From the NCBI RefSeq assembly GCF_900105125.1, contig NZ_LT629750.1:1922001-1986000 (forward strand): 64,000 nt of DNA, given 5' to 3'. Under the pieces are notes generated by a model. That model saw only the letters and a list, made by a program, of their open reading frames with translations, made no database searches and was not told where the DNA came from. This document shows positions 1 to 41,604 of this stretch, in pieces. How positions within the stretch are numbered: the stretch's first letter is position 1; each line of letters begins with the position of its first letter. Position numbers and translations under genes: made by a program. Origin of the DNA: Bradyrhizobium canariense (GTDB lineage Bacteria; Pseudomonadota; Alphaproteobacteria; Rhizobiales; Xanthobacteraceae).

Positions 1-927
1 CGTATCGGCCCCGGCGAGAGCGCGCTGCGTAATCGCATCGCCGCCCCCTACAAGGTTGGGCGCGAACCAAGCCAGCATTCCAACTGCTGCGCCGATAAGA
101 CCCGCACGCAGCTCGACAGGCCATCGGTCGAACCGATCGATCGTCGCAATGGTTCCAAGCAGCAAGCGATTATAGACGATCGCCACAAGTCCGGCGACCG
201 CCCCAAGGATAAAGTAGAGCGGCCTCGTTGCGGCACCAGCATAGGCCAACGCTTCAACATGGAAGTCTGCCGTGTCGCCGAGGAGCACACGGGACACGGA
301 GATGGCGGTCGCCGATGCGCCGAGCGCCGCTATCGCAACCCGTAGTTCGAATCGCCGCACCAACTCCTCCAGGACGAAAATGGCGCCGGCAATCGGCGCG
401 TTGAACGCAGTGGCTAGCCCTGCTCCCGCGCCGGCGGCAAGCAACACTCTGCAGTCAGGCCAGCTGCGTCGAAACTCCTTGCCGACAAGATGCCCGATGG
501 TCGCCGCCATCTGGACGCTCGGGCCTTCACGGCCGAGTGCGAGCCCCGAACCGATCGCCAGCACCCCGGCAACGAACTTCACCGGTATGATGCGAAACGG
601 CGCCTGCGGCAGCTCCTCGTTCAGCACCGCCTCGACGTGTGGGATGCCGCTGCCTGACGCGTGAGGCGAGTAGCGGCGAACCAGCCAGGCCGCTACCCCC
701 GCCCCGGCCGCACAAGCAACGCTAACGACCAAAAAGCCGGCGAAACCTTCCGAATGCGCCCAGACAATGACGGCATCGCGAAACCTGTCCGCCCGTTCAA
801 GCAAGAGCAGGAAGAGCGCTCCCACCAAACCTGAAACTGCGCCAACGATGAGCGCCAAAACAGCAAGCACCAGGAGGCTGCCATGGCCGCTATCTCGGTC
901 GCTCTCTCGTCTCTGCTCTGGGGTCAT
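1..927 (-). CDS. ClC-family chloride channel/antiporter (partial, C-terminus beyond window)
   Basis: Integral membrane protein of the ClC family, moving chloride across the inner membrane, often in exchange for protons. Reading the minus strand from an ATG at 927 gives an open frame to base 1 with the ClC signatures in order: GSGIPHVEA, then GREGP (the gating glutamate), then NAPIAGAIFVLEE, whose first glutamate matches the internal proton-glutamate site of antiporter-type ClCs. The first hydrophobic helix begins about 20 residues in. The 3' end lies outside the window, so a C-terminal CBS domain cannot be judged. It is the last visible gene of the minus-strand train that starts at 10.4 kb. 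The family call is secure; transporter rather than channel is an inference from the glutamates. Confidence 0.9.
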   Translation of the reverse strand, partial: MTPEQRRESDRDSGHGSLLVLAVLALIVGAVSGLVGALFLLLLERADRFRDAVIVWAHSEGFAGFLVVSVACAAGAGVAAWLVRRYSPHASGSGIPHVEAVLNEELPQAPFRIIPVKFVAGVLAIGSGLALGREGPSVQMAATIGHLVGKEFRRSWPDCRVLLAAGAGAGLATAFNAPIAGAIFVLEELVRRFELRVAIAALGASATAISVSRVLLGDTADFHVEALAYAGAATRPLYFILGAVAGLVAIVYNRLLLGTIATIDRFDRWPVELRAGLIGAAVGMLAWFAPNLVGGGDAITQRALAGADT

Positions 928-1032: not shown

Positions 1033-2292
1033 TCATTGTGTCTCCTTCTCACGGTCCCGAAGCTTTGCGGCGGCGCGCGATGCGTCAAAGACCACTTGGT
1101 CGTATTGCCAAAGGCGCTCGAAGAACCTCAGGACTCGGCGCTCGCCGTCGCCGTCCTGCTCTGCAAATTGCAGAATTTCGGCCAGGGTTCGGTTCCCGTC
1201 GATGGTGCCGAGCAGCCGTTCCTCGAAAGAGTCGACCGTACAAACAAGATCGGTGAACTTGTGCCTCCGGTTTATCAACACCGCGGCGCTACCAGGAGGC
1301 AGACGTTCCCGAACGCACACCGTCCACGGCAGCGCAACGGGAACGTAGTCGCGCCATGCATCGCCGGCAAAGTTAATCGGCTGGCCCACATCGGAACGAT
1401 CGTCTCGGTACGCGATGAAGTTGTGCGAGACCATCGTTCCACGGAAGAGCTCGACGGCGGCGTGCTGCAGTCGCGAGGGCAACGAAGCCAGGCGCGCGGC
1501 GTGCGGGCTGCGCGCCACCATCCCGCATTGGGCCAGGTAGGGAGCCTGCTCGATCCAGCGACCGAAGGACATGCCGCACCGATCGAGCCATGCATACAGT
1601 TCCGGGACGGTGTAGGCGCGATCTTGGGGATGGAGGAGTGCGTCCGCCATCGCTTCCGGCCGCCGGAAATCCGCCGCCCGGCGCAGCAGGCCTGAAATCG
1701 GGTGGTCCGCCGGCAATGCTTCGATTGCGGCGCCGAGATCTCGTAGATCCTCTGCCGACGGGCTGATTCCGAGCAGGCCGCAGTACTCCTGCATCATGTA
1801 GATCCCGGCCCGGCCGTAGCGTGCGTAGACCATCAGGCGCATCGCGCCGCCCGGACGCAGCACATCGCGAAGGGCGCGAAGGCCGTGATCCGGGTCGGGC
1901 AAGTGATGCAGCACGCCTGTGCAGACCACGAGGTCGAAGCAGCGCCCAAGCTCCTGGACGCTCTCGATCGGCAGTTGATGGAGCTCGAGGTTCTCGAGAT
2001 TGTACTTGCGCTGAAGATCGCGCGTGTGACGCAGGCTCGTGTCGCTGATGTCGATCGCCGTGATTCGAGCATCGGGCTCGCGAAGCGCGTACCGCGCGGC
2101 CTGCGAAGTACCGCATCCGGCAATCAGGATTTCTTGTCCTCCCTGCGGTTGCTTGGCCGGCCACATCAGATGGAATTCGGCCCGGCGACGGTCCGGGTTC
2201 TTGTAGTGGTCGCGGTGCGCGTCCAGACTGGTGCGTGGGGCCGGATAGGGCATCCTTTCGTAGAAGTCGCGGACTTCTTCGCTGCGGTTCAC
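1033..2292 (-). CDS. class I SAM-dependent methyltransferase
   Basis: Predicted cytoplasmic methyltransferase of 419 residues. The Rossmann SAM-binding motif I is visible as LIAGCGTSQAARYA, followed by the acidic ITAIDIS, and then LVVCTGVLHHLPDPDHGLRA and LRPGGAMRLMVYA, as in Methyltransf_11/25-type enzymes. The C-terminal half (about 230 residues) is an extension I cannot place. The start chosen is a GTG at 2292, because AGGAGG sits six bases before it and the next residues (NRSEEVRDFYE) are where family similarity begins. An upstream GTG at 2355 has no ribosome site. It lies 106 bases downstream of a sulfatase gene on the same strand. The substrate is unknown. Confidence 0.8.
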   Translation of the reverse strand: MNRSEEVRDFYERMPYPAPRTSLDAHRDHYKNPDRRRAEFHLMWPAKQPQGGQEILIAGCGTSQAARYALREPDARITAIDISDTSLRHTRDLQRKYNLENLELHQLPIESVQELGRCFDLVVCTGVLHHLPDPDHGLRALRDVLRPGGAMRLMVYARYGRAGIYMMQEYCGLLGISPSAEDLRDLGAAIEALPADHPISGLLRRAADFRRPEAMADALLHPQDRAYTVPELYAWLDRCGMSFGRWIEQAPYLAQCGMVARSPHAARLASLPSRLQHAAVELFRGTMVSHNFIAYRDDRSDVGQPINFAGDAWRDYVPVALPWTVCVRERLPPGSAAVLINRRHKFTDLVCTVDSFEERLLGTIDGNRTLAEILQFAEQDGDGERRVLRFFERLWQYDQVVFDASRAAAKLRDREKETQ

Positions 2293-2398
2293 GTCGGACC
2301 TCCTCGGATTTCCGGCCTCAGCGCCCGCCCCTAGCCGCTCAACGTCGAGCGCCACAGGCGGCAGGCCAAAAGCCTGCCGCCCGAAGCCGAATGTGGGC

Positions 2399-3943
2399 TC
2401 AATGCATTCCGGAGGCGGTTTCGTGCATCATCCTCAACGCGTCGTCGAGGGTGAAGGTGTTGGGCTTCTGAACCGGCGGGAAGTCCTTGAAGGTCGCCGC
2501 CCATTGGGCGGCGGCCGCCTGCGCTCCGTACAACAGGTAAATGTGATGAATGTACCACTCCCAGTAGGTGTTGGACGTCTGATCCGCCCGCTCGTAAGGG
2601 TCGGTGCGAAGATTGAACATCTTCGGTATTCTGAGCCGGGTGAACGGCTCCGCCCAGACCTGTAGCGTGCCGTGGCACCGCTGCTCCATGAACGCCATCT
2701 TCCAATTGTCGTAGCGCAAGCCCAGCACGTCGCCGTCATCGCTCAAATACATGAAGAACTCGCGCGGGCTCTCCTTTGCCTCGCCGGTGAGGTAGGGCAC
2801 AAGATTGTAGCCGTCGATGTGGTTCTTGTAGGTGCGGCCGATCGCCTGATAACCGCTCTTCAGCTTCTCGACGACATCCGGATCGCCGGCCATGGCGAGG
2901 AAGGTCGGGAACCAGTCGTGATGCTGGACGATCCCGTTCGAGACTTGGCCCGGCTTGATCTTGCCCGGCCAGCGCACCACCATCGGGACCCGGAAGGCGC
3001 CCTCCCAGTTGGTGTTCTTCTCGCTGCGGAACGGCGTCATGCCGCCATCCGGCCACGAGTTCATGTGGGGGCCGTTGTCAGTCGAATACATGACGAAAGT
3101 GTTGTCGGCGATGCCGAGCTGGTCGAGATAATCGAGCACCTGGCCGATGTTCTTGTCGTGGTCAACCATCGTGTCGTGATAGGGGGACTGCCAGCGTCCC
3201 GCCTGTCCTTTGTTCTCGGGCTTTGGATGGGTGTAGAGATGCATGTGGGTCGTGTTCAGCCAGACGAAGAAGGGCTTCCCCTCGCCGTTCTGGCGCTTCA
3301 TGAAATCTTTGGCTGCCGCAATAAATTCGTCGTCGCAGGTTTCCATGCGCTTTTTGGTGAGCGGGCCGGTGTCGGTCACTCTCTGTTTTCCCACTTTGCC
3401 CCAACGCGGTTCGTCGGTCGGGTCGTCCTTGTCGGTCGCCCAGGAATGGATCACGCCGCGCGGTCCAAACCTATTACGGAAGTTCGGGAAATCTTTCTCG
3501 TTCGGGTAGTCCTCCATTTCCGGCTCTTCTTCGGCGTTGAGGTGATAGAGGTTGCCGAAGAACTCGTCGAACCCGTGGTTGGTCGGCAGCATGCGGTTGA
3601 GATCGCCGAGATGGTTCTTGCCGAACTGCGCGGTCGCGTAGCCCTGGTTCTTGAGGCAGGCGGCGATGGTCGCGAGCTTCTCCGACATGCCGATCGGCGC
3701 GCCGGGGATGCCGACCTTGGAGAGGCCGGTGCGATAGACGCTCTGCCCGGTGATGAAGGAGGAGCGTCCCGCCGTGCACGACTGCTCGCCGTAGCAATCG
3801 GTGAACATCATGCCTTCCTTGGCGATGCGGTCGATGTTGGGCGTCTTGTAACCCATGAGGCCGTGCGAATAGCAGCTCAGATTAGAGATGCCGATGTCGT
3901 CGCCCCAAATGACGAGGATGTTCGGCTTTTTCGTCTTGGCCAT
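2399..3943 (-). CDS. type I (formylglycine) sulfatase, no signal peptide
   Basis: Arylsulfatase-superfamily enzyme of 514 residues hydrolysing a sulfate ester, substrate unknown. The core is CTAGR with Cys56 as the residue to be oxidised to formylglycine, preceded by the metal-binding WGDDIG near the N-terminus. Later motifs are GKNHLGD, TTHMHL and STDNGPHMNSWPDGG, which carry the remaining metal and sulfate ligands. AGGAGG lies 8 bases before the ATG. There is no signal peptide, since the catalytic fold begins at residue 7, so a cytoplasmic location is likely. This contrasts with the Tat-exported paralogue at 46.4-48.2 kb. An FGE homologue at the head of the same gene train (9.4-10.4 kb) is the obvious maturation partner. 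Aryl versus alkyl sulfatase cannot be decided. Confidence 0.92.
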   Translation of the reverse strand: MAKTKKPNILVIWGDDIGISNLSCYSHGLMGYKTPNIDRIAKEGMMFTDCYGEQSCTAGRSSFITGQSVYRTGLSKVGIPGAPIGMSEKLATIAACLKNQGYATAQFGKNHLGDLNRMLPTNHGFDEFFGNLYHLNAEEEPEMEDYPNEKDFPNFRNRFGPRGVIHSWATDKDDPTDEPRWGKVGKQRVTDTGPLTKKRMETCDDEFIAAAKDFMKRQNGEGKPFFVWLNTTHMHLYTHPKPENKGQAGRWQSPYHDTMVDHDKNIGQVLDYLDQLGIADNTFVMYSTDNGPHMNSWPDGGMTPFRSEKNTNWEGAFRVPMVVRWPGKIKPGQVSNGIVQHHDWFPTFLAMAGDPDVVEKLKSGYQAIGRTYKNHIDGYNLVPYLTGEAKESPREFFMYLSDDGDVLGLRYDNWKMAFMEQRCHGTLQVWAEPFTRLRIPKMFNLRTDPYERADQTSNTYWEWYIHHIYLLYGAQAAAAQWAATFKDFPPVQKPNTFTLDDALRMMHETASGMH

Positions 3944-4004
3944 TTCAATCTCCTCCTGTTGGCATTGCAGTTGCAGGCGTAGTAGTGAGGTATGACTCCG
4001 TGCA

Positions 4005-5045
4005 TTACGATCGCTTTACGGTAGAGCGCGGCGCGCTTGTCGGGGTGTAGCCTTTGCGCTGCTTACCGCGAAACATCCAGTAGACGACCGCGGTGTAGGC
4101 GCTGATCACCGGCAGCACGAACAGTCCGGCGCCCCAAAACAGGAAAGATAAGGAAGCCTCAGGCGCTGCCGCCGCGGCCACCGTGACGCTGTAGGGGATC
4201 ATGTACGGCCAGAACATCACCGCGAGCGAGAGAAAGGCGGCGACGAAGAGCGCGACCGTCATGGCGAACGGCCATGAGTCGCGAAGCTGACGCGCACCCG
4301 AAAAAATGCCAACGATCGCGATGATGCCGATCAGCGGAAAGACAAAGCCCCAGGAACGGTCGAGGAAGAGGCTTCCAGTCATGCGGGCCCGATCGATGAA
4401 CGCCATCACGACGGCAACGCACAGGACCGCAACAACCGCACCGGCAAGCACCGGTATGCGACTGCGCGCCCAGCTGCGTAGCGGATCTTCGGACTTAAGG
4501 ACCAACCAGCCCGCGCCCAGCAGCGCATAAGCAAGCACGAGGCCGATCCCGCACAGGAACGGAAGCCCTGCGACCCAGTCGAACGAGCCTCCGGAAAACT
4601 GGCCATTCGCGACCGGTATTCCGCGGATCATGGCTCCGACCGCTGCGCCTTGGACAAAGGCCGCAACGAGCGAGCCGACAGCGAAGCTGCGATCCCAGAA
4701 TCCTTGTGCAGCGCCCCGAGCGCGGAATTCGAATGCGACGCCGCGGAATATCAGTCCCAAGAGGAGCAGCAGCACCGGGATGTAAAAGGCCCCCAGGAAC
4801 ACTGCGTAGACGGCGGGGAAGGCTGCGAACAACGTGGCGCCCACCACGATCAGCCAAGTCTCGTTGCCGTCCCAAAATGGAGAGATCGAGGCGATCATTT
4901 CGTCGCGCAGCGCCGCGTCCTTGGTGGCGCCAAAAAGGATCCCGACGCCCAGGTCAAAGCCGTCTAGGACGACATAGGCGAGAATCGCCACGCCGATCAC
5001 GGCGACCCAGAACAGGGCGAGCGCTGAGGGGTCCGTCGCACTCAT
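4005..5045 (-). CDS. cydB: cytochrome bd-type quinol oxidase subunit II
   Basis: Subunit II of a bd-family terminal oxidase, pairing with CydA in the inner membrane. The 346-residue frame starts MSATDPSALALFWVAVIGV and has the early FDLGVGILFG and SPFWDGNETWLIVVGA motifs typical of CydB, then about eight more hydrophobic helices. The start ATG (5043-5045) overlaps the cydA stop as ATGA, so translation is probably coupled. The open frame runs further upstream into cydA, but that part is antisense-like noise and was not used. The length and the CydA partner fit the cyanide-insensitive (CIO) branch. It is followed after 61 bases by the sulfatase gene. Confidence 0.93.
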   Translation of the reverse strand: MSATDPSALALFWVAVIGVAILAYVVLDGFDLGVGILFGATKDAALRDEMIASISPFWDGNETWLIVVGATLFAAFPAVYAVFLGAFYIPVLLLLLGLIFRGVAFEFRARGAAQGFWDRSFAVGSLVAAFVQGAAVGAMIRGIPVANGQFSGGSFDWVAGLPFLCGIGLVLAYALLGAGWLVLKSEDPLRSWARSRIPVLAGAVVAVLCVAVVMAFIDRARMTGSLFLDRSWGFVFPLIGIIAIVGIFSGARQLRDSWPFAMTVALFVAAFLSLAVMFWPYMIPYSVTVAAAAAPEASLSFLFWGAGLFVLPVISAYTAVVYWMFRGKQRKGYTPTSAPRSTVKRS

Positions 5046-6433
5046 CGCGGTTCCTCCGTGGAGGATTGCATTGCAACAGCGAGCGGCCGAGCCGGAGTCA
5101 TTTTCGCCCGGTCCGACGCATCGCGCCCGGGGCCATCCCGCAAAAGTCGGTGAATGAAAAATAGACCAAAGCCGAATATAGTCGCGTAGGCGATGACGTA
5201 GCACGCCAGCGAAAACAGCACGTCCCCCGTCGTCAACGACGGCGTTACAGCATCCTTCGTACGCAGAAGGCCGTAGACTACCCAGGGCTGGCGGCCGACT
5301 TCGGCGGTAAACCATCCTGCCAGCACGGCGATGAAGCCGCTCGGGAAGGATAGGAACGCCACCCACAGAAACCAGCGAGTGCTCTCCAGCCGGCCGCGCC
5401 AGCGCAGAAAGCTTCCAAACCAAGATACCGCGAGCATTATCAGGCCCATTCCCACCATGACGCGGAACGCGAAAAAGGGAATGATCACCGGTGGGCGGTC
5501 TTCGGGCGGGAAGGTCTCCAGCCCAATCTCGCGCGCGGTCCAATTGCCGGAGGCGATGAAGCTGCCGAGCCCTGGGATTTCGATCGCAAAGAGATTCCGC
5601 TCCTCGAATGGATCAGGCAGAGCGATCAGCACCTCGCTTGCCGGCTGCTGGGTCTTCCAGCGCGCCTCGATCGCAGCGAATTTAGCCGGCTGGTAGTTGA
5701 GCACGTAAATGCCGGTCAAATGACCGAACACCATTTGCACCGGAATCATAACGGCGACGAGCCCGAGCCCCCAGCGCAGCATGGCGCGCGACTCCGGCAC
5801 GTCCTTGCCACGCAGCAGGTACCAGGCGCCGGTGGCCGTGATGCCCATGCCGGTGGTCAAGAAGGCGGCCAGCAGCATGTGTGGCCATCGAATCCGCATG
5901 ATGGGCCCGGTGGTGATGGCCCACCAGTCGCCCGGCTCGATCCTGCCGTTGACCATGACATGGCCGAGCGGCACCTGCATCCAACTGTTGTTGGCGAGGA
6001 TCCAGAACGACGAGAACATGGTGCCGAGCGAGACCATGCAACAGGAGAGAAAGTAGAACCAGGGCGGCACGCGGTCGCGACCGAGGAGCACGACGCCAAA
6101 GAATGTTGCTTCCAACATGAAGGCCGTGAAGGTCTCATAGCCCAGCAACGGCCCCTGGATCGATCCGGTGCGCTCGGCCAGTACGCTCCAGTTGGTGCCG
6201 AACTGGAAGGCCATCACGATGCCGCTGACCACGCCCATGCCGAACGACAGAGCAAATATCTTGAGCCAGAAGTCGAAGATCCGCCGATAGAGCTGGTTGC
6301 CGGTCCACAACCGCACGCCTTCGAGAGTCGCAAGCCATGCGGCGAGCCCAATCGTGAAGGCCGGGAAGATGATATGGAAGCTGATGACGAAGGCGAACTG
6401 CACCCGCGACAGCAGAACGGGATCAAGCTCCAT
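5042..6433 (-). CDS. cydA: cytochrome bd-type quinol oxidase subunit I (CIO-like)
   Basis: Haem-bearing subunit I of a bd-family quinol oxidase, reducing oxygen with quinol electrons. The 463-residue protein begins MELDPVLLSRVQFA. It keeps an early histidine (SFHIIFP), a conserved acidic LEATFFG, WPHMLLAAF with the second haem-ligand histidine, and GRQPW near the end. The stretch between the helices that form the quinol loop looks short, as in CIO-type enzymes rather than E. coli CydA. The start at 6433 is supported by AGGAG seven bases upstream; an ATG 15 bases earlier overlaps that site. It lies 50 bases downstream of a PQQ dehydrogenase gene, a plausible electron donor via quinone. Confidence 0.94.
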   Translation of the reverse strand: MELDPVLLSRVQFAFVISFHIIFPAFTIGLAAWLATLEGVRLWTGNQLYRRIFDFWLKIFALSFGMGVVSGIVMAFQFGTNWSVLAERTGSIQGPLLGYETFTAFMLEATFFGVVLLGRDRVPPWFYFLSCCMVSLGTMFSSFWILANNSWMQVPLGHVMVNGRIEPGDWWAITTGPIMRIRWPHMLLAAFLTTGMGITATGAWYLLRGKDVPESRAMLRWGLGLVAVMIPVQMVFGHLTGIYVLNYQPAKFAAIEARWKTQQPASEVLIALPDPFEERNLFAIEIPGLGSFIASGNWTAREIGLETFPPEDRPPVIIPFFAFRVMVGMGLIMLAVSWFGSFLRWRGRLESTRWFLWVAFLSFPSGFIAVLAGWFTAEVGRQPWVVYGLLRTKDAVTPSLTTGDVLFSLACYVIAYATIFGFGLFFIHRLLRDGPGRDASDRAKMTPARPLAVAMQSSTEEPR

Positions 6434-6483
6434 GACCAGACTCCTCATTGGCTCGCGCGGCGGCGGCGGCGCCGTCGGCTGCT

Positions 6484-8268
6484 TCAGTAGCCCTCGAGAC
6501 CGAGGATCGCGATCTTTGCCCTCCTGATTTCGGCAGGAAAGGCGGGAGCTACGTAGCCGGTCGTCACCGCAACTTTTTGAGTGCCGTTCACCGTATAAGT
6601 GATCACCCCGCCACCGATCGCGCCGCCGATCTTCTTGCCCCACAGCTTCTGGCCGGTCGCCGCGTCAAGCGCATAGAAATTGCCGCCCAGGTCACCGAAG
6701 AACACAAGGCCCCCAGCGGTCGGCGTCACAGCACCCATGATCGGATAATTGGACTTCAGCCTCCACTTCCACACCCCTGTGTCGGCGTCGACCGCGTGAA
6801 GCCATCCCGCCCAGAAGCCGTCGGCACGCGAGAACTTTCCGAACACGTTGAACGGATTGAGATTTCTATCTCCCGTCCACACCTGCCCGAGCGGGACAGC
6901 CGCCATTTCTTCCCTGGTCTGCAGCTTCACCGTCACGCACCAGTCGACCTGGCCGGTGAAGATGAAATTGGTCACAGGGTCGTAGGCCGGGCTGTTCCAT
7001 TCCCCCCCGCCCGCCGCGCCCGGACAAAAATGGACGTCTTTGTCGACAGCGAAGGGCTCTTCCACATTCTCGATTCTCGTCACCGGCGTCCGGTACAAGA
7101 GCTTGTTGTCAGCAAGATCAAAGCCGTAAAGGTGCCCGTCCTTTGGCGCCACCGCCATGAGCCTTTTGCCCCCCCTCGTCTTGATCAAAGCCGGCGGGTT
7201 GGAGACGTCCCAGTCGTGCCAATCCCTGGGCACAAGCTGGAAATGGTTCTTGTACGCGCCGGTCTTGGCGTCGAGGACAACGACGGAGCCGGTGAAGAGA
7301 TTGTCCCCCTGGCGGACGCTGTTGTCGTAGTCAGGCGCGGGATTGCCAACCGGCACATACAAGAGCCCGGAAGCCGGGTCCAAGGTCGTAGAAGTCCAGG
7401 CTCCCCCGCCGCTGATCGGAGCGCCAGGCACGTTTTTCCAAGTCGAAGTGTCGAGCGGCGAAGTGCCCTCAGGCCCGCGAACCGTATCGCCCTCGGTCTT
7501 GGGCACGAGGAAGAATTGCCACACAATCTTGCCGGTCCTGGCGTCGAGCGCGTACATGTGCCCTTTGGCGCCCTTGAAGTCTCCGCCGGCGTTGCCGACG
7601 AAGACGAGGCCCTGCCAGGCGATCGGTGCCGCTGGCACGTCTTCGCCCTTTTTCACGTCCGCGATCGTCGTCTCCCAGAGACGCTTGCCGGTTTTGAAGT
7701 CGTAGGCCAGCACGCGCCCGTCGTCTGTCCCACGGAACAAACTCCCGTCGAGGTAAGCCGCGCCCCGATTGGTCGGGATAATGTAAGCCGGATATTCCTC
7801 GTGCCTGCGCCAGTTCTCGGCGCAGGTCGAGGGGTCGATCGAGAAAATATCGAATTCGGTCGTCCCGATGAGCGCGCCCTCCACCATGATCAGGCCGGTC
7901 TCGAAGCTGGTCAATCGCCAGGTGTCGTAGGTACATGAGACCTTGAGCTTGGCGACGTTCTTCGTGTTGATCTGGCTGAGGTCTGAGAAGCGCTCGGAAG
8001 TCAGCGTTTTGTTGTAGCTCGGCCAGTCCGCGGCGGCAGGCGAGGCAGGAGCCGCAGGCGCGGGCGCCGCAGCGCCCTTGTAATTTGGGTTCGTTTCCGT
8101 GGCTACGGCACCCGCAGGCGCAAGGAGCGACAGAATTTCGCCGCGCAACTCGCCGACGCGCGCCTCGACTCCGGCCTCGTCCGCAAGCGCGGAGGTGACT
8201 CCTCCGCCCACCACGACCGCGTTTAGCGCAAGGAACACGATGCTGAAGAGTTCGAGTCTGCGATTCAT
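6484..8268 (-). CDS. secreted PQQ-dependent quinoprotein dehydrogenase
   Basis: Exported eight-bladed propeller dehydrogenase of 594 residues, expected to oxidise an alcohol or related substrate in the periplasm with pyrroloquinoline quinone. After a signal peptide (MNRRLELFSIVFLALNAVVV) come DWPSYNKTLTSERFS, which resembles the start of PQQ alcohol dehydrogenases, and repeated tryptophan-docking blades such as ALDARTGKIVW, AVDADTGVWKW and ALDAATGQKLW. GGEWNSPAYDP and GGAWTSTTLDP also fit the family. No haem c motif CxxCH is seen, so electrons would need another carrier or quinone. GGAGG before the ATG supports the start at 8268. The downstream neighbours are cydA and cydB. The substrate is unknown, and no pqq biosynthesis genes lie in the window. 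Confidence 0.85.
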   Translation of the reverse strand: MNRRLELFSIVFLALNAVVVGGGVTSALADEAGVEARVGELRGEILSLLAPAGAVATETNPNYKGAAAPAPAAPASPAAADWPSYNKTLTSERFSDLSQINTKNVAKLKVSCTYDTWRLTSFETGLIMVEGALIGTTEFDIFSIDPSTCAENWRRHEEYPAYIIPTNRGAAYLDGSLFRGTDDGRVLAYDFKTGKRLWETTIADVKKGEDVPAAPIAWQGLVFVGNAGGDFKGAKGHMYALDARTGKIVWQFFLVPKTEGDTVRGPEGTSPLDTSTWKNVPGAPISGGGAWTSTTLDPASGLLYVPVGNPAPDYDNSVRQGDNLFTGSVVVLDAKTGAYKNHFQLVPRDWHDWDVSNPPALIKTRGGKRLMAVAPKDGHLYGFDLADNKLLYRTPVTRIENVEEPFAVDKDVHFCPGAAGGGEWNSPAYDPVTNFIFTGQVDWCVTVKLQTREEMAAVPLGQVWTGDRNLNPFNVFGKFSRADGFWAGWLHAVDADTGVWKWRLKSNYPIMGAVTPTAGGLVFFGDLGGNFYALDAATGQKLWGKKIGGAIGGGVITYTVNGTQKVAVTTGYVAPAFPAEIRRAKIAILGLEGY

Positions 8269-8435
8269 CTCCGCCTCCCTTGTTTGGTTACAAGCGGGTT
8301 TTCCACTGTCGAGGGGCAACCGCCCTTCGAAGGCAAGAGCTTCGCTTTTACGCTCATGCTGATGAACCTGTTTACGATGGTCGGGCTTGAGTCAGTCACT
8401 GCGGAACCCCTTTCACTCGCAATTTCCCCCGGCGG

Positions 8436-8906
8436 CTACACAAGGCGCAGCAGCACGGCAAAGAAGGCAAACAGGCCGATGCAGATGAGGAGGACGGCGA
8501 TCGCGAGAACCGGCGTCTCCACTCCTTCCCTTGTCGGTCCGGCAATTGGAGCGAACGATCCACCCCAAAGGTAACGAATGATCCACAAGTACTGCCAAAC
8601 CGCGATGAGTAGCGCCAGGACACCGCATGAGATCAGGGCCAGCCCGAGGTCGCGCGGTGCGCTTGGATAAGCAGCAGGTCGGGCTCCGGGCATCTGTTCC
8701 AGGCGTTCGAAGAACTGGACGATCGCGAAGCCGAAGCCGATCAGCGCGGTTGCAGTCCGTATCCACGACATCATCGTGCGCTCGATGCTCAGGCGAGTAC
8801 GGATCCAGCTAAAGTGGCTGTCTGAGGTTACTCTTACCTCGAACCTGCCCGCGCTTGGGGCGGAGTGTTGGTCTGCCGTGCCGGGTGCTTCATTGCTGGC
8901 GTTCAT
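8436..8906 (-). CDS. DUF202 (YidH-like) membrane protein
   Basis: Small inner-membrane protein of 156 residues. The DUF202 signature is visible as LSIERTMMSWIRTATALIGFG, split here over residues of the first membrane segment, followed by two further hydrophobic segments (LGLALISCGVLALLIAVWQY and a C-terminal LAIAVLLICIGLFAFF). The N-terminal 30 residues are polar and Ser/Ala-rich. GAGG eight bases before the ATG supports the start. It sits between the small membrane protein gene (42 bases away) and the quinoprotein gene in the sulfatase train. The molecular function of DUF202 proteins is not known. Confidence 0.8.
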   Translation of the reverse strand: MNASNEAPGTADQHSAPSAGRFEVRVTSDSHFSWIRTRLSIERTMMSWIRTATALIGFGFAIVQFFERLEQMPGARPAAYPSAPRDLGLALISCGVLALLIAVWQYLWIIRYLWGGSFAPIAGPTREGVETPVLAIAVLLICIGLFAFFAVLLRLV

Positions 8907-8948
8907 TTCGGTGTCCTCACCAGATTTGTGCGCGGATGTGCCATCGCG

Positions 8949-9422
8949 TCACCTGCGCGCGATGCGCGCGACAAGGCCTCGGACTAGCAAGTACGGTACA
9001 AATGCAAGCAACAACGCGACGACGAGCGCCTCATTCGGATAGAACGTCTTGAGCACGAGCAGCTGATAGATTAGGTCGATCACCAGCCCCAGAAGGATGA
9101 TTCTGGCGGTCGCATTCAACCCCTCGCGCAGCCGTCCAACGCGTTCCTGCGAATTGCGCAGCACCGTCATGAAATACGGAGAGCGGCCGGCCCGCGCGTC
9201 GGCGCGGCCATCGTGGATAGCTGCGATCACGGCCATCAACGGCTGCAGGACGAAGCGGAACCTCATCGGCTCGTCCGGCCGCTCGACCAGGTCGTGCCAG
9301 AATCGTTGGAAGGTTGCGACCGTAACGCCGTGCCACAGCACGCCGGCGACGAACAGCACGATGCCGAACACCACGACCAACTTGGCCAGAAGGCCCAGTT
9401 CCTGCGGATTGGCATCGGTCAT
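8949..9422 (-). CDS. small integral membrane protein, function unknown
   Basis: A 157-residue protein I do not recognise. It has an N-terminal hydrophobic segment (LLAKLVVVFGIVLFVAGVLW), a polar middle rich in Arg and Glu (FWHDLVERPDEPMRF) and two C-terminal hydrophobic segments (IILLGLVIDLIYQLLVL and ALVVALLLAFVPYLLVRGL), ending in ARIARR. The start ATG at 9422 overlaps the stop of the upstream FGE gene as ATGA, so the two are translationally coupled. The longer upstream reading frame lies inside the FGE gene and was rejected. The coupling implies a role with the FGE/sulfatase system, but that is inference. Confidence 0.7.
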   Translation of the reverse strand: MTDANPQELGLLAKLVVVFGIVLFVAGVLWHGVTVATFQRFWHDLVERPDEPMRFRFVLQPLMAVIAAIHDGRADARAGRSPYFMTVLRNSQERVGRLREGLNATARIILLGLVIDLIYQLLVLKTFYPNEALVVALLLAFVPYLLVRGLVARIARR

Positions 9423-10405
9423 GGCGCTGCTCCCGCCTGCCTGACGATGCATCGGAACCCCACATGACTTGTGGAGGTGTCGATTGGCTCTGCGTGACGT
9501 GCGGCCGGGCGGTAGCGGCGGCAATAGTTTGGTGCGCACAAATGCGAACCGCCCTTGATGACTTTGCGGGGAATCCTGATGTTGGACAGGCGCGGGTCGT
9601 AGCTCGCATCTTCACGAGCACCTCGCGGATTTTCGGGAATGCAGCAAGCTTTCGGTGCGTCCGCTTCGTGCCTGGGCGAGTACCAATCGGTAGTCCATTC
9701 CCAGACATTGCCGATCATGTCGTGCAAGCCGTGGCCATTCGGCGGAAACGCTCCGACCGGTGAGGTCCGTTCGAAGCCATCCGTATTGATCTTCCGATGC
9801 GGAAATTCCCCGTGCCAGGTGTTGGCCATGTGCTTGCCGCCGGGCTTGAACTCGTCACCCCAGGCATATTCAGCGCCGTCGAGCCCGCCGCGCGCGGCGA
9901 ATTCCCATTCCGCCTCGGTCGGCAATTCCTTGCCGGCCCACGCCGCATAGGCCATCGCGTCGGAGTACGCGATGTGTACGACCGGATGATCGTCGAGGCC
10001 GCGGATCGAACTGCCCTTGCCGTATGGGCGACGCCAATTGGCACCGAACGTGAAGCTCCACCAATTCGCGAAATTGCGCAGATCGACGGGATGATCCGGT
10101 GGACTGAAGACCAGAGAGCCAGCCTTCAGCATGTGCGGCAGAGCCCCCGGATAATCCTTCGGGTCGGGGGCAATCTCAGCGAAGGTAATGTGCCCAGTCG
10201 CCTCGACGAAGTGCCGAAATTGGCGGTTCGTCACAGGGGTTGGATCTATCCAAAAACCAGCAACCCTAACGCGATGCACGGGCGCTTCTTCCGGATAATG
10301 CTTGTCTGATCCCATCCGAAAAATGCCGCCCGGAATGAAGACCATCGGCGCCGATGAACGCTGCCGGTTTTCGGCCTTGACGAGAGTATCGGTCGAAATA
10401 CTCAT
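9419..10405 (-). CDS. formylglycine-generating enzyme (SUMF1/FGE-sulfatase) family
   Basis: Predicted sulfatase-maturing oxygenase of 328 residues, converting the Cys of CxAxR sulfatases to formylglycine. Seen in order: FIPGGIFRMGSDKHYPEE at the N-terminus, VTNRQFRHFVEATGH, LPTEAEWEFAARGG, MIGNVWEWTTDW and GGSHLCAPNYCRRYRPAARH, with Cys290 and Cys295 matching the copper-binding active-site pair of FGE. No signal peptide, so it would act before sulfatase export. The start at 10405 (MSISTD) was preferred because the upstream part of the open frame is occupied by a repeat shared with 13.9 kb. It heads the gene train that includes a CTAGR sulfatase at 2.4-3.9 kb. It is closely similar to the homologue at 48.2-49.2 kb. 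Confidence 0.93.
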   Translation of the reverse strand: MSISTDTLVKAENRQRSSAPMVFIPGGIFRMGSDKHYPEEAPVHRVRVAGFWIDPTPVTNRQFRHFVEATGHITFAEIAPDPKDYPGALPHMLKAGSLVFSPPDHPVDLRNFANWWSFTFGANWRRPYGKGSSIRGLDDHPVVHIAYSDAMAYAAWAGKELPTEAEWEFAARGGLDGAEYAWGDEFKPGGKHMANTWHGEFPHRKINTDGFERTSPVGAFPPNGHGLHDMIGNVWEWTTDWYSPRHEADAPKACCIPENPRGAREDASYDPRLSNIRIPRKVIKGGSHLCAPNYCRRYRPAARHAEPIDTSTSHVGFRCIVRQAGAAP

Positions 10406-10642: not shown

Positions 10643-11011
10643 TCAGGCGCAGCCGCTGATTGCGCAGCGCACGACCGATCGCAGCCGGCGATCCGAGAAC
10701 GGGTGCTCAAGGAAGTCGAAAGCGCCGGAGCGCACTAACTCGATCGCAATCGCGAACTCCGAATCGCGTCCGATCACGACGACCGCGAGCGGAAGTTGCC
10801 TGCGATTAATCTCGTGGATCAGCGCTCGCAGTCCAATACCCGGAAGATCGAGGGGCACGAGAACGCATCCCGAGGCGGTTGCGGCAACTTCGTTGAGGAA
10901 TTGTACGGCTCCCTCGTAACTCTTTACTACGACAGGCTCGCCCGCGAGTGCGTCTACGATGCGACGGCGCTCATCCGGAAGCGGATCGACGATATAGACG
11001 GTTTCGGCCAT
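10643..11011 (-). CDS. stand-alone degenerate receiver-domain protein
   Basis: A 122-residue single-domain protein resembling FixJ-type receivers along its whole length (MAETVYIVDP..., then AFDFLEHPFSDRRL). Aligned by eye with the FixJ-like regulator 170 bases upstream, the phospho-acceptor Asp54 is replaced by Pro53. The conserved switch Lys104 is His103, and one of the paired N-terminal acidic residues is Pro10. Another Asp lies two positions after the acceptor site. It should therefore not be phosphorylated in the usual way and may act by binding, for example to the neighbouring kinase or regulator. GAGG precedes the ATG. It has no output domain and is on the same strand as the kinase/regulator pair. 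Confidence 0.8.
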   Translation of the reverse strand: MAETVYIVDPLPDERRRIVDALAGEPVVVKSYEGAVQFLNEVAATASGCVLVPLDLPGIGLRALIHEINRRQLPLAVVVIGRDSEFAIAIELVRSGAFDFLEHPFSDRRLRSVVRCAISGCA

Positions 11012-11184: not shown

Positions 11185-11793
11185 TCAACTATTGCGTCGC
11201 TCGATCACGAGCCGGATCAGTTCGGCGGCCGAACGGACCCGCAGCTTTTCCATGATGTGACCGCGGTGCAGTTCTACGGTCCGGTAGCTGATGTCGAGCA
11301 CCCTGGCGATCGATTTACTGGATAAACCCTTAGCGACCTGCTCCAGCACATCGCGCTCACGTTCGGTCAGTGTTGCCAGGCGTTCGGCGAAGCCCTCGCC
11401 AGTGCCGGTCACTAGTCGAGACTCGGCATCGAGGCGGAGCGCCTCGTTGATGCTATCCAGCAATTGCTGCTCACGATATGGTTTTTGAACGAAATCGACG
11501 GCGCCGGCTTTGATGGTCTTGATGGCAACCGCGATGTCTCCATGGCCGCTGATGAACACGATCGGAACGCGCGCACCAATCGTGTTTAACTTGTCCTGGA
11601 GCGCAGGCCCGCTGATATGTGACATGCGGACGTCAAGCACGAGACAACCCGGCTGCTCGGGATCGAACCCGTCAAGAAACTCCCGCGCGGAACGAAACGT
11701 AGCCGCTCGCAGTCCGACCGACATCACCAGTTCTGCAATCGAATCCAATACTGCGGCATCGTCGTCAACGATGAACACTGTGGGCTCACTCAT
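11185..11793 (-). CDS. FixJ/NodW-type response regulator (receiver + LuxR HTH)
   Basis: DNA-binding response regulator of 202 residues. The receiver domain (1-120) has the acidic pair D10/D11, phospho-acceptor Asp54 in CLVLDVRM and Lys104 in VQKPYRE. After a linker, a GerE/LuxR helix-turn-helix (about 140-200) reads LTERERDVLEQVAKGLSSKS and RTVELHRGHIMEKL. Its ATG overlaps the stop of the upstream sensor kinase gene as ATGA, so the two form a translationally coupled two-component pair. Likely targets are nearby promoters, perhaps the FGE-quinoprotein-oxidase train on the same strand; that is inference from position. Confidence 0.93.
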   Translation of the reverse strand: MSEPTVFIVDDDAAVLDSIAELVMSVGLRAATFRSAREFLDGFDPEQPGCLVLDVRMSHISGPALQDKLNTIGARVPIVFISGHGDIAVAIKTIKAGAVDFVQKPYREQQLLDSINEALRLDAESRLVTGTGEGFAERLATLTERERDVLEQVAKGLSSKSIARVLDISYRTVELHRGHIMEKLRVRSAAELIRLVIERRNS

Positions 11794-13691
11794 GCCGTCA
11801 GTTTCCCTTTATGAGGGATAGGCAGCGTGAATTGAAAAACGCATCCACCATCCAGGTTCGGGGCCAGCGATATCCGGCCGCCATGCGCTTCAATGATAGC
11901 GCGGGAGATCGAAAGCCCGACTCCCAATCCTGCTCCTTTCGTCGAATAGAACGGCTCAAAAATATGCGTGGCAGCGTCGGGGCTAATTCCCGGACCGTAA
12001 TCGGTGACGCTCACGGCGATTTCATTTTCCGCCGTGCCCGAAACTCCAACTTTGATGACATTGGTGGTGATTCCAGCTTCCTCTATCGCCTCAATGGCAT
12101 TGCGGATCAGGTTCAGGACCACCTGTTGAATCTGAACCCCATCGACGAAGATCGGTGGAAGATCCCTCGAGATCACGGACTCGAACCTGATATTCGCGCT
12201 GCGACTTTCCATTTCCACCAGCTTCAAGGTATCGGCGACCAGTTGCCCAACTTCAATTCTGGTGTTCTTCGGTTCATGCTTCTTCACCATGGTACGAAGC
12301 GACTGCAGCACATCGCCTGCGCGCGAGGCTTGCTCTCCGATTTTGTCCAGCAGGTCTTCAACCTTGGCTGCATCCACGGTGCCGGCTAGTCGCCGGCGCG
12401 CCGCGAGCGCGTAATTCTTTATTGCGACGAGCGGCTGATTAATCTCATGCGTAATCGCCGCAGACATGTCATTGACGGCATGGACACGCACCAGGTGCGC
12501 AAGATTTTCGCGATACTGTTCTGTTTCAACCTTAGCCCTTCCCATCTGCTCGGCGGCCAGCTTGCGACGTCGACGCTCGAACAGCATCCACGCGATCAGC
12601 GCGCCCTGAAACACTACAACGGCCAGCGCAGCGAAGACCTGCAGCGGATATTCGCGCCATAAAGGCCGCTCGGCGAAGCGGATTTCGCACCCGGGGGGCA
12701 AGCTGTGCTCGTCCAACGACCATTTGCGCAGAGCGAGAGCGTCCGCTACGCATCGAGCAGGAACTTCGGACACAGCTGGAATTGTGCCACCCGATCCCAA
12801 CCGGATCAGTCGCTCAGCTACCATACGCCCTTGGTCTTTGTAGGACTCCAGGACTCCTCCCGCAATGCCGCCGCCAAGATAGGTTTCAAATAGGCCATAT
12901 ATCGGCGCAGACGACACTGTACTGATAGCGCGGACCACCTCACCCGGCGTATACGGACGGCCGTCGCGATCGCGGAACTGCGCGAGATACAATACTATTG
13001 TGCTTGCCGGCTCGCGTCCTATCCGCTCTATGAGTTCCGTCTGCGGGAGCCCTAGTAGAAATTCCGTTTCTATTGTGTTGCGCCGCTCGGCCAACACTCT
13101 GCGGGTATCGTTCGTAATATTCTTGTCATAGTCGGATACCCCAGCGACAACGAGGAGGCGCCGCGCGTCGGGCTGCATTCGCTGGGCGAGATCGACGGTC
13201 TCCGTGATTTTCTGACTCTCCACGACGCCCTCCGTGCCCTCCGGAAGCGTCATACGTTCGAGCGATTTCGCCGGAATGCTATGAAAGAGTATCTTGGCAT
13301 CCGGCCAAAGCTCTTTCCTGTGCTGAACTACGAAATCGAGTGCAGGATGTGTGACAGCGACGATGATGTCGATCTGCAGTGCCTTGTATTTCTTGACGAG
13401 CAGAGCCATGAGTTCCGGCTCGAAATCTCTGAGGGCGAACCGTTGAGCATCGAGTGTCTCGGTGAAGTACTGAAATCGTGGCGTTGCATTTTTTGCCAGG
13501 ATCTCGCGCATGGCTGCGTCGATTGCCAAATACGCAGGTAAATAAGGGTCTGTGGCGTTGAGGAACAGGACCCGAGTTTCCGGTTTGACCGCCCGCAGCG
13601 GCGCCGTCATGAAACAAAGCGCCATAGCGGCAACGAGCAAGCGTGCGAGGCCACCCGCGAGCTTCACCGACGCCTTGCTGGCAAGGTTCAT
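11790..13691 (-). CDS. sensor histidine kinase with ABC-binding-protein-like sensor domain
   Basis: Membrane sensor kinase of 633 residues. The N-terminal signal/anchor (to about 34) leads into a periplasmic region (35-345) that reads like the ABC-type substrate-binding sensor fold (VLFLNATDPYLPAYL, DIIVAVTHPALDF, GGVLESYKDQGRM). One membrane helix spans about 351-371. The HisKA box ITHEINQPL has the phospho-accepting His415, and the HATPase region shows VLNLIRNAIEA, DYGPGI and GLGVGLSISR. The ATG at 13691 was chosen because it starts directly at the signal sequence; a GTG at 13733 is the alternative. Neither has a clear ribosome site. It couples to the FixJ-like gene. The ligand sensed is unknown. 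Confidence 0.9.
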   Translation of the reverse strand: MNLASKASVKLAGGLARLLVAAMALCFMTAPLRAVKPETRVLFLNATDPYLPAYLAIDAAMREILAKNATPRFQYFTETLDAQRFALRDFEPELMALLVKKYKALQIDIIVAVTHPALDFVVQHRKELWPDAKILFHSIPAKSLERMTLPEGTEGVVESQKITETVDLAQRMQPDARRLLVVAGVSDYDKNITNDTRRVLAERRNTIETEFLLGLPQTELIERIGREPASTIVLYLAQFRDRDGRPYTPGEVVRAISTVSSAPIYGLFETYLGGGIAGGVLESYKDQGRMVAERLIRLGSGGTIPAVSEVPARCVADALALRKWSLDEHSLPPGCEIRFAERPLWREYPLQVFAALAVVVFQGALIAWMLFERRRRKLAAEQMGRAKVETEQYRENLAHLVRVHAVNDMSAAITHEINQPLVAIKNYALAARRRLAGTVDAAKVEDLLDKIGEQASRAGDVLQSLRTMVKKHEPKNTRIEVGQLVADTLKLVEMESRSANIRFESVISRDLPPIFVDGVQIQQVVLNLIRNAIEAIEEAGITTNVIKVGVSGTAENEIAVSVTDYGPGISPDAATHIFEPFYSTKGAGLGVGLSISRAIIEAHGGRISLAPNLDGGCVFQFTLPIPHKGKLTA

Positions 13692-13924
13692 CGGATTCGT
13701 ATCGCTCAGGAAAGCGATCAAGGGCGGCCTCACGCGATACTAAAAAGGTCAGCAGTTCGAACCCAAATCCGAGGCGGTCCTACTACAGTACCCCCGCTAT
13801 CAGGCCGCGACTATGTAGAAACGGACCGAAGCTGTGATAAGTGCGATTGACCGGCGCTGCCTCTGATGCCGCCGTCGCAGCTTCTCGGCCGGGCCGCGGA
13901 AAGGAGGACCGAACTCCCCTTCGG

Positions 13925-39399: not shown

Positions 39400-41493
39400 T
39401 TAACTGGGAGTAGAGAGGGGCGCGGGCTCACAACACTGCAGATGGTAGCGAGCTACTTTGTCCTGCGGATATTTCGACAGAAACACCGCCAGCTCGGCTT
39501 CCGCTGTGACCAACGGCCCGTTGCGAAGCGCCGCGTACACGATCTCCCATTCGCGGCAGAGCTCCGTGTCATCTGCACTGCCATCACCTGATTCCGAAAG
39601 TAGTTCGTAGATCTCGAAGGCTTCGGCAAAGCCCTTGGGGCTGATGCGGTCGACACTGCGGAAGTGAAAACGGGATTCCGCGCGCTTCTTGAGAGCGGAG
39701 CTGACGAGGATCGACGTCCCGTAGTTCTTGTTGAGGCCTTCAAGCCGCGCGGCCAGATTCACCGTCGCGCCGAGCGCGGTATAATTCATGCGATCCTCCG
39801 ACCCGATATTGCCGACAACGGCATCTCCGGTATGCAGACCGCACCGCGTGCGGTAGATCGGCCAGCCCTCGCGCTCGAATTCGGCATTGAGGCGATTATT
39901 GGCGCGCTGAAACGCAAGCGCGGCGGCGCAGGCGTTGACGGCATGATCGGGATCATCGGCCGGCGCGTTCCAGATCGCCATGATGGCGTCGCCGATGAAT
40001 TTATCGACGGTGCCGGAATGACTCATGATCTCATGCGACATGGCCGCGAAGTAACGGGAAGTATACTGCATGACCTTGGTGGGGTCGGCCTTTTCGGTAA
40101 TCTCCGTGAAGTTCACGACGTCGGAAAACAGCAGCGTGACTTCCCGTCGCGTGCCGCCGAGCTGAAGCGGCGTCCCGGTTTCGATCAGCCGTTCGACCAG
40201 CCGCTTCGGCACGAAACGCGAGAACGTCTGCGTGACGGTGCGCATCGTGGAGACCGAGCGACCGAGGTCATCGATTTCGCGAATGATTGAGCGCACCGGC
40301 GGAGCGGCCGAGGGCTCGAACCTCTGAATCCTGTCGGTCTCCTCAGCCAGCCGTCGCAACGATCGAGACAACAGCGAGCCGATCAGAAAGACGATCGGAA
40401 CCATCAGTGCAACGAAGCCGAGCGTGAGCGCAAATAGCCGCCCGCGTTCGGAAAGAATGTTGGCGAAAAACTCATCGACCGGCGCCACAATCGCCATACG
40501 CAGATTAGCCGGGCCCGAATGAGGTATCGTCTGGAACGCAGCGGCATACAGTCGCCGTGCCGGATCGCGGAAGAACTGTTCGGAGATTCCGCTGGTGCGC
40601 CAGGCTCGGATCGCCTTGAGCACACCTGCCATATCTGTTTTGCGAAGGTGAGGAATACTGTCAATGCCCTGGCCCGACACTTCTCGCCCGAGCAACTCGG
40701 ACATGTTCGGATGGGCCAGGATGCGGTCGTCGTCGTCAAACAGAAACGCCACGCCTGAGGGTGTCAGCCGTTCCCTTTTCAGAAGTTCTTCCGTCACGTT
40801 CAGCAGCAGGTCGCCCGCCACCACGCCGCTCCTGCCATGCTCCAGTGTCGACTGAACGGTGTAGCCAAGCTTTCCCGTCGCGAAGAACACGTAAGGCCCG
40901 GTCAGCCAGCTGCCGTCGTGGCGGTCGGCATCCTTGTACCAGGGTCTTTCGCGCGGATCGTAATCAAGCGGACCGGCCAATTCCCTGATCGTCTCAAGCT
41001 GATCCGACAGAAAGAGCCTTCTTGATTTTATGTGGCCGGGGTCGGACCGCGAGATCACCACCAGGCGAAATGAGGCCCGCTCGGGCGCCTCAAGCCTCGC
41101 CCGCGCGTCGTTCCCTGCATTATCGATGGCGTCCATTTCGATGAACGAGCCATCGTTGTAACCGACATACAGATTGAACAACTGCCTGTTATCCCTCAGC
41201 ATGGCGGCAAGCAATTCGTTGAGCTGCCGATCGTCCTCGATGTCAGCCGACTGAATCGACGGCAGTTCCTTTAAGACTTCGACGCTGTCACGGACCTGCT
41301 TCAATTGCGATCCGATCCGGTCCGCCGATTCCTCGGCCACCTTGTTGATAAACTTGCTGGCCGCCGAATTGGTGATTTCGGTGATCCGCGAAAAACTCAG
41401 ATAGACGAGCGTCAGGCCGATCACGAGAACGATCGCGACAAAGAGCGCGATGATGGATGTCTTGAATCCGAACTGAACGCTTGCGTTCTTCAT
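39400..41493 (-). CDS. membrane adenylate/guanylate cyclase with Cache sensor and HAMP
   Basis: Class III nucleotide cyclase of 697 residues. Membrane helix 1 (about 12-35) is followed by a periplasmic dCache-like sensor (about 40-330; YDPRERPWYKDADRHDGSW is typical), a second helix (LFALTLGFVALMVPIVFLIG), a HAMP-like linker and the catalytic domain near 440-620. The latter shows LLFSDVVNFTEITEKADP and FIGDAIMAIW, carrying the two metal aspartates, then NYTALGATVNLAARLE. The ATG at 41493 was preferred over a GTG seven codons earlier. It would convert an extracellular small-ligand signal into cAMP or cGMP; the ligand is unknown. Confidence 0.9.
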   Translation of the reverse strand: MKNASVQFGFKTSIIALFVAIVLVIGLTLVYLSFSRITEITNSAASKFINKVAEESADRIGSQLKQVRDSVEVLKELPSIQSADIEDDRQLNELLAAMLRDNRQLFNLYVGYNDGSFIEMDAIDNAGNDARARLEAPERASFRLVVISRSDPGHIKSRRLFLSDQLETIRELAGPLDYDPRERPWYKDADRHDGSWLTGPYVFFATGKLGYTVQSTLEHGRSGVVAGDLLLNVTEELLKRERLTPSGVAFLFDDDDRILAHPNMSELLGREVSGQGIDSIPHLRKTDMAGVLKAIRAWRTSGISEQFFRDPARRLYAAAFQTIPHSGPANLRMAIVAPVDEFFANILSERGRLFALTLGFVALMVPIVFLIGSLLSRSLRRLAEETDRIQRFEPSAAPPVRSIIREIDDLGRSVSTMRTVTQTFSRFVPKRLVERLIETGTPLQLGGTRREVTLLFSDVVNFTEITEKADPTKVMQYTSRYFAAMSHEIMSHSGTVDKFIGDAIMAIWNAPADDPDHAVNACAAALAFQRANNRLNAEFEREGWPIYRTRCGLHTGDAVVGNIGSEDRMNYTALGATVNLAARLEGLNKNYGTSILVSSALKKRAESRFHFRSVDRISPKGFAEAFEIYELLSESGDGSADDTELCREWEIVYAALRNGPLVTAEAELAVFLSKYPQDKVARYHLQCCEPAPLSTPS

Positions 41494-41604
41494 TTTCGGT
41501 TCACCCGGTTGCACCCCCGCGATTGATGTCGATCATAAGCAGCGATACTTGATGCTCCGTCTATTTGCTCTTTGTTCCCCGACTCTCTTTGATCTCAGCC
41601 ACAA

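What the first reader, a model, noticed from the sequence alone, without database searches (positions are those of the whole stretch)
1033..10405. FGE-led gene train joining a leaderless sulfatase to a PQQ quinoprotein and a bd-type oxidase
Eight complete genes on one strand, with overlaps (FGE/membrane protein, cydA/cydB) and short gaps, link a sulfatase-maturing enzyme, a sulfatase without a signal peptide, an exported quinoprotein, a quinol oxidase, a DUF202 protein, an unknown membrane protein and a methyltransferase. I know of no described pathway with this set. One reading is desulfation of a sulfated alcohol coupled to its oxidation, with electrons going through quinone to a cyanide-insensitive oxidase. 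The kinase/FixJ pair upstream may control it.
Basis: partly seen in the sequence, partly recalled or inferred. Interest (0 to 1): 0.72.

Follow-up and report, generated by a model that had tools for sequence, protein, structure and literature searches.

The report
Sulfatase operon carrying a respiratory cassette
A soil bacterium, probably Bradyrhizobium, carries a gene row that joins a sulfate-ester-cleaving enzyme and its activator to a dehydrogenase and its own oxygen-consuming oxidase, a pairing of two modules that also exist separately in other genomes.

Summary
The eight-gene train is real: FGE, MEM, DUF202, quinoprotein (QP), cydA, cydB, leaderless sulfatase, methyltransferase. A ninth gene, a ClC channel, follows across the window's left edge. 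The train is composite. Four Bradyrhizobium genomes hold FGE-MEM-DUF202-sulfatase without QP/cydAB; QP-cydAB occurs without a sulfatase in another Bradyrhizobium and two Variovorax. In the window QP-cydAB sits between DUF202 and the sulfatase. QP orthologues (>=84%) are in 7 of 265 genomes; cydAB is beside them in 6 of 7, a sulfatase in 5 of 7. Reciprocally, CydA of >=76% is in 6 of 257 genomes, always beside that QP. QP keeps PQQ-site residues and a lanthanide-type Asp-x-Asp, but has Asp for Glu at a metal ligand and no vicinal cysteine pair. Related cydAB pairs follow malate:quinone oxidoreductase in 13 of 24 fetched loci, so QP sits where a quinone-reducing dehydrogenase is expected. Best reading: two modules joined in an accessory island.

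The parts
9419..10405 (-). FGE, aerobic formylglycine-generating enzyme, 328 aa, no leader
   Evidence: PF03781 284.5 bits; GGSHLCAPNYC with Cys290 and Cys295
8949..9422 (-). MEM, small membrane protein of no named family, 157 aa
   Evidence: no Pfam/NCBIfam hit; matches in 10 of 257 Bradyrhizobium genomes at 1e-10 and in 1 of 385 Alphaproteobacteria, the own genome, at 1e-8; 1985 database proteins at 1e-5
8436..8906 (-). DUF202 membrane protein, 156 aa
   Evidence: PF02656 57.9 bits
6484..8268 (-). QP, exported PQQ-type quinoprotein, 594 aa, no CXXCH motif
5042..6448 (-). cydA, bd-type quinol oxidase subunit I, short Q-loop
   Evidence: PF01654 486 bits; equivalents of E. coli H19, E99, E107, H186, K252, E257, M393 present
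4005..5045 (-). cydB, bd-type oxidase subunit II
   Evidence: PF02322 274.8 bits; TIGR00203 149 bits, cut-off 117.3
2399..3943 (-). type I sulfatase, leaderless, 514 aa, formylglycine motif C56-T-A-G-R
   Evidence: PF00884 186 bits; motif; best PDB sequence match arylsulfatase 7aj0, 1.9e-53
2357..2381 (-). 11-pair GC-rich hairpin between sulfatase and methyltransferase
   Evidence: 58-base stretch folds at -36.8 kcal/mol, z -4.44, 0 of 200 shuffles as good; not in the terminator scan
1033..2355 (-). class I SAM methyltransferase, 440 aa
   Evidence: PF08242 68.3 bits and related models
1..927 (-). ClC chloride channel/antiporter, 5' part; the gene runs left out of the window
   Evidence: PF00654 326.9 bits on L135:16606-17931; neighbour of the row in G107 and G109 too
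10643..11011 (-). lone receiver domain
   Evidence: PF00072 40.8 bits
11185..11793 (-). FixJ-like response regulator
   Evidence: NF006900 192.8 bits, below its cut-off 255
11790..13733 (-). histidine kinase with a large N-terminal sensor region
   Evidence: HisKA, HATPase_c; other kinases of the genome match from residue 367 on only

Best explanation
The row is a composite accessory island of Bradyrhizobium. Module 1, FGE-MEM-DUF202-sulfatase, matures and runs a cytosolic type I sulfatase, probably to release sulfate from imported sulfate esters (function inferred from the families). Module 2, QP-cydA-cydB, is a short dedicated respiratory chain: an exported quinoprotein dehydrogenase oxidises an alcohol- or sugar-type substrate with PQQ and a metal (probably Ca or a lanthanide) and passes electrons, directly or through a carrier encoded elsewhere, to the quinone pool, from which its own bd oxidase takes them to O2. 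In this lineage module 2 lies inside module 1, between DUF202 and the sulfatase, so both are likely to be transcribed together. Shown: gene order, separate occurrence of the modules, reciprocal linkage of QP and CydA, retained active-site residues. Inferred: co-transcription, substrate, cofactor metal, the route to quinone, and why the two are joined.
For: Module 1 without QP/cydAB in G018, G193, G207, G208, with sulfatases 72% and 78% identical to the window's in G207 and G208. Module 2 without a sulfatase in the fetched stretch in G232 (L177) and in two Variovorax (L073, L080). Joint set in the window's order in G107 (no methyltransferase) and G109 (no FGE, one extra sulfatase), rearranged in G166. 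CydA >=76% in 6 of 257 genomes, all six beside this QP; next best 62%. In G232 a QP of 90% sits beside CydA of 76% and CydB of 59%. Related cydAB pairs are preceded by Mqo in 13 of 24 fetched loci and by an NDH-2-like gene in 3 of 24, one of them tested. QP Asn, two Asp, Lys and Trp present in 38 of 38 subfamily rows, aligned to XoxF 4mae; nearest folds PedH and XoxF. pqqC in the genome. Heme ligands in CydA.
Against: No cytochrome c or membrane redox subunit accompanies QP, and the window's QP looks like a cleaved, soluble periplasmic protein, so its route to quinone is open. QP misses the cut-offs of both quinoprotein models (334.4 of 480.05; 246 of 650) and has Asp for Glu at a metal ligand. 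G163 has QP and two sulfatases with no cydAB in 20 kb. In 11 of the 24 related cydAB loci no Mqo is upstream; eight of these have other genes, FdhD in several. WHDWD was in one of the two scan patterns, and 34 of the 38 subfamily rows come from that scan, so its conservation is partly circular. The seven QP loci share ancestry.
Confidence: 0.6

Rival explanations
1. One pathway: a sulfated alcohol is imported, desulfated in the cytosol, the freed alcohol leaves and is oxidised by QP in the periplasm, electrons going through quinone to CydAB.
For: Sulfatase and QP share loci in the window, G107, G109, G166 and G163 and in MAG locus L074; in G163 both neighbouring sulfatases carry export-type N-termini, so there they could share QP's compartment.
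Against: Six of the eight QP-linked sulfatases, the window's among them, are leaderless while QP is exported; each module occurs without the other; the QP-linked sulfatases vary from 37% to 95% identity to the window's; no importer is in the row.
Confidence: 0.15
2. Neighbours without a common function: a mobile accessory island collects sulfur scavenging, a stress-tolerant oxidase, ClC and oxalate-decarboxylase-like genes.
For: Sporadic distribution (7 of 265 genomes); recombinase- and transposase-like genes beside L070 and L178, recognised by eye (the one tested has an IS630 model match below its cut-off); ClC in 4 of 7 and a bicupin in 3 of 7 QP loci.
Against: QP and this CydA type are reciprocally linked and stay together through rearrangement; DUF202, MEM, FGE and sulfatase recur as a set.
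Confidence: 0.2
3. QP is a non-enzymatic propeller (an empty quinoprotein), for instance an assembly or sensing part of the oxidase.
For: It scores below the cut-offs of the enzyme and the empty-quinoprotein model; no vicinal Cys pair in any of the 46 of 48 rows that cover the place.
Against: Metal and PQQ residues Asn, Asp, Asp, Lys, Trp are invariant in 38 of 38 rows and the fold is closest to active Ln-dependent dehydrogenases; it scores higher with the enzyme model than with the empty one (334.4 and 246 bits).
Confidence: 0.05

Closest known systems
Lanthanide-dependent PQQ alcohol dehydrogenases (PedH, XoxF)
   Different: No vicinal Cys pair, Asp for Glu at the metal ligand, conserved Cys129 and Cys166; 25-28% identity; Ln use untested
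Cytochrome bd / CIO gene clusters of proteobacteria (Degli Esposti 2015, PMC5322542, passages seen)
   Same: cydA-cydB overlapping pair with heme ligands and short Q-loop
   Different: In the main text of that survey of over 200 clusters the words sulfatase, PQQ, malate and dehydrogenase do not occur (figures and supplements not seen); here QP is the upstream partner
Mqo-cydA-cydB(-bicupin) loci of Bradyrhizobium (seen here)
   Same: A quinone-reducing dehydrogenase directly upstream of a cydAB pair, CydA about 60% identical
   Different: Mqo in place of QP; no sulfatase match in the short fetched flanks
Sulfatase-FGE pairs of Bradyrhizobium and kin
   Same: FGE next to a sulfatase of the same family; FGE match in 26 of 38 fetched sulfatase loci, one of them weak
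   Different: MEM and DUF202 in 1 of those 38, QP or cydAB in 0 of 38
E. coli K-12 yidG-yidH-yidI-yidJ
   Same: A DUF202 protein and further inner membrane proteins beside a putative sulfatase (annotation)
   Different: No FGE, QP or oxidase there; homology of MEM and YidI not tested

Membership tests
PQQ-dependent dehydrogenase, methanol/ethanol family (TIGR03075) | score above curated cut-off | tested here: not met
   334.4 bits against 480.05
Acido-empty-quinoprotein group A (TIGR04528) | score above curated cut-off | tested here: not met
   246 bits against 650
PQQ/metal alcohol dehydrogenase superfamily | propeller fold and PQQ/metal residues | tested here: met
   fold; Asn, Asp, Asp, Lys, Trp 38 of 38; the Glu ligand is Asp in 38 of 38
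PQQ/metal alcohol dehydrogenase superfamily | vicinal disulfide Cys pair | tested here: not met
   absent in the window QP and in the 46 of 48 rows that cover the place; some Bradyrhizobium paralogues lack it too
Lanthanide-dependent dehydrogenase | D-x-D motif | tested here: met
   D369-W-D371 (611-aa numbering) opposite the two Asp of XoxF 4mae in an ungapped stretch
Lanthanide-dependent dehydrogenase | activity with Ln | not testable with these tools
   needs an enzyme assay
Cytochrome bd oxidase | CydA and CydB domains, heme ligands in CydA | tested here: met
Cyanide-insensitive oxidase | insensitivity to cyanide | not testable with these tools
   only the short Q-loop was seen
Type I formylglycine sulfatase | Sulfatase domain and C-x-A-x-R motif | tested here: met
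Aerobic FGE | FGE domain with C-x4-C pair | tested here: met
   the catalytic role of the pair is recalled
FixLJ | FixJ model above cut-off; PAS domain in the kinase | tested here: not met
   192.8 against 255 bits; no PAS hit in the kinase at 1e-3
One co-transcribed operon | single transcript | not testable with these tools
   only gaps and the hairpin are known

The most novel reading that the evidence does not exclude
The island is a sulfate-ester-fed respiratory pathway: a formylglycine sulfatase frees an alcohol that a new, lanthanide-type quinoprotein with an Asp-Asn-Asp-Asp metal site oxidises, handing electrons at the membrane straight to a dedicated bd oxidase with which it forms one complex.
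Probability: 0.1. Interest if true: 0.8.

Novelty: new variant of a known kind. Interest (0 to 1): 0.5.

Why it matters
It defines a testable quinoprotein-bd oxidase cassette and, with the Mqo-cydAB and NDH-2-like-cydAB loci seen beside it, suggests that Bradyrhizobium pairs single quinone-reducing dehydrogenases with their own bd oxidase. It gives a genomic handle on a quinoprotein subfamily with an altered metal site and on two uncharacterised membrane proteins (MEM, DUF202) that travel with sulfatases.

Tried and rejected
A first structure job for QP with 18 close sequences gave pLDDT 41 and was not used; a second with 58 sequences gave 87. In one search I labelled D371 as the catalytic Asp; the alignments put D369 at the catalytic Asp and D371 at the lanthanide Asp, so the labels printed are out of date. 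A note places the hairpin at 2360-2395; recounted it is 2357-2381. In the tree I labelled P0004 as cyd-linked without having seen its neighbours and left P0115, identical to the G109 protein, unlabelled, and L070, L083 and L100 were not in it; its change count is not used. I take from it only that the seven rows with cydAB seen beside them lie in one clade of 13 rows (99/97) and none in its sister clade of 22. The promoter and terminator scan found no more than shuffles do. The kinase match is common in the own genome through its kinase domain (34 matches), so only matches over most of the length were counted. Literature searches for the gene set list no paper that I recognise as describing it; of the listed or looked-up papers I opened only PMC5322542, PMC4013037, PMC8546591 and PMC11996626, and saw passages only. 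The library lacks most subscription journals.
Full report
WHAT IS THERE. The window lies in a 7.84 Mb genome at C1:1922001-1986000. Its genus is Bradyrhizobium by inference: contigs of same-genus handles have the lengths of named Bradyrhizobium records (L070 and G107, 1305832; L069 and G163, 332343; L068 and G166, 24590). The row does not end at 1033: a ClC channel gene begins at 927 and leaves the window; a ClC gene also follows the methyltransferase in G109 and the sulfatase in G107. An 11-pair hairpin lies between sulfatase and methyltransferase (58-base stretch, -36.8 kcal/mol, z -4.4).

THE PROTEINS. FGE has Cys290 and Cys295 in GGSHLCAPNYC, and the sulfatase has C56-T-A-G-R, so an aerobic formylglycine pair is likely. 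The sulfatase has no leader. Of eight QP-linked sulfatases (window, L068, L070, L074, two in L178, two in L069) only the two of L069 (G163) begin with an export-type N-terminus (by eye). CydA keeps the equivalents of E. coli H19, E99, E107, H186, K252, E257 and M393 and has a short Q-loop; it is 44% and 46% identical to the genome's two other CydA and 72-95% to the other QP-linked ones. MEM has no family in Pfam or NCBIfam.

NEIGHBOURHOODS. In 265 Bradyrhizobium genomes QP of >=84% identity is in 7: own, G107, G109, G163, G166, G189 (in two contigs), G232. Beside it: cydAB in 6 of 7 (not G163); a sulfatase in 5 of 7 (not in the 20 kb of G232; G189 is cut by contig ends and shows none); MEM and DUF202 in 5 of 7; methyltransferase in 3 of 7; ClC in 4 of 7 (in two pieces in G166); a bicupin in 3 of 7 (in two frames beside the window). 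FGE is whole in the window and G107, cut by the contig end in G166, a fragment in G189, and not matched in the fetched stretch of the other three. G107 (no methyltransferase) and G109 (no FGE, one extra sulfatase) keep the window's order; G166 has the set rearranged, with cydA-cydB-QP instead of QP-cydA-cydB. More distant QP loci with such neighbours are L071 (cydB-QP), L074 (sulfatase, QP, part of MEM, kinase) and two Variovorax, L073 and L080 (QP-cydA-cydB). Among all 48 loci, five of which are from four of these seven genomes, cyd matches occur in 6 and sulfatase matches in 4; the six lower-identity QP loci L179-L184 of the genus show none of the row's other genes.

RECIPROCAL TEST. CydA of >=76% identity is in 6 of 257 Bradyrhizobium genomes, all beside this QP; the next is 62%. 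In 372 Alphaproteobacteria genomes drawn evenly only the own genome and one same-genus match of 61% passed 1e-160. I then looked at the 24 fetched loci of the next-best CydA matches (fetching was capped at 30 loci; many more matches are listed). An Mqo gene (family checked on one, 880.6 bits against 733) lies directly upstream in 13 of 24, and a bicupin match is near in 11 of 24. Three of the others have an NDH-2-like gene upstream, with a small ORF between in two; one was tested. The remaining eight have other genes, FdhD among them (tested on one). QP therefore occupies a place where a quinone-reducing dehydrogenase is often found.

THE SULFATASE MODULE ALONE. MEM has 11 matches in 10 of 257 genomes. 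Besides the five QP-linked ones, G018, G193, G207 and G208 show FGE-MEM-DUF202-sulfatase with no QP or cydAB match in the fetched 20 kb, and two matches (G007, second copy of G166) lie elsewhere, the latter behind a SulP permease-family gene. In G207 and G208 a sulfatase is 72% and 78% identical to the window's. Among 38 other sulfatase loci (taken from the matches listed, two of 40 fetched stretches being the own genome's and left out) FGE is near in 26 (one weak), MEM-DUF202 in 1, QP or cydAB in 0. The window's row is thus module 1 with module 2 between DUF202 and the sulfatase.

MECHANISM. Inferred: the sulfatase frees sulfate from imported esters; QP oxidises a periplasmic alcohol- or sugar-type compound; electrons reach quinone and CydAB. 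Direct hand-over of the desulfated alcohol is possible but unsupported, because the two enzymes lie on different sides of the membrane and the modules separate. The N-termini of QP in L071 and L074 look like uncleaved anchors, the window's like a cleaved signal (by eye); this could place QP near the quinone pool in some relatives.

PRINT. In the listings I recognise no paper on the set. In the main text of a survey of over 200 bd clusters (PMC5322542) the words sulfatase, PQQ, malate and dehydrogenase do not occur (figures and supplements not seen). PMC4013037 (passages) notes PQQ dehydrogenases in COX operons of type a-II, a different oxidase.

Noticed in passing
window 39400-49244, minus strand: A second FGE-sulfatase cluster: FGE, sulfatase with an export-type leader (60% to the first), HAD hydrolase, two DUF1254/DUF1214 proteins, HlyD, guanylate cyclase with a Cache-like stretch.
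   Followed up: partly
L213-L236: Mqo-cydA-cydB in 13 of 24 loci and a bicupin match near in 11 of 24; NDH-2-like or FdhD genes upstream in others.
   Followed up: partly
L135:14921-15950 (left of the window): A bicupin gene of the oxalate decarboxylase family matches in two pieces in different frames, so looks broken; whole ones lie near the QP loci of G107 and G166.
   Followed up: no
L203:11415-13635: A MEM paralogue directly behind a SulP sulfate permease-family gene.
   Followed up: no
L178:12441-13682, L068, L069: An epimerase-like protein of 413-441 aa recurs near three QP loci (G109, G166, G163); no match in L135 beside the window, the window itself was not searched for it.
   Followed up: no
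L089, L090, L092, L094, L097, L099, L110: A patatin-like protein (named by eye) recurs near more distant QPs in 7 of 48 loci.
   Followed up: no
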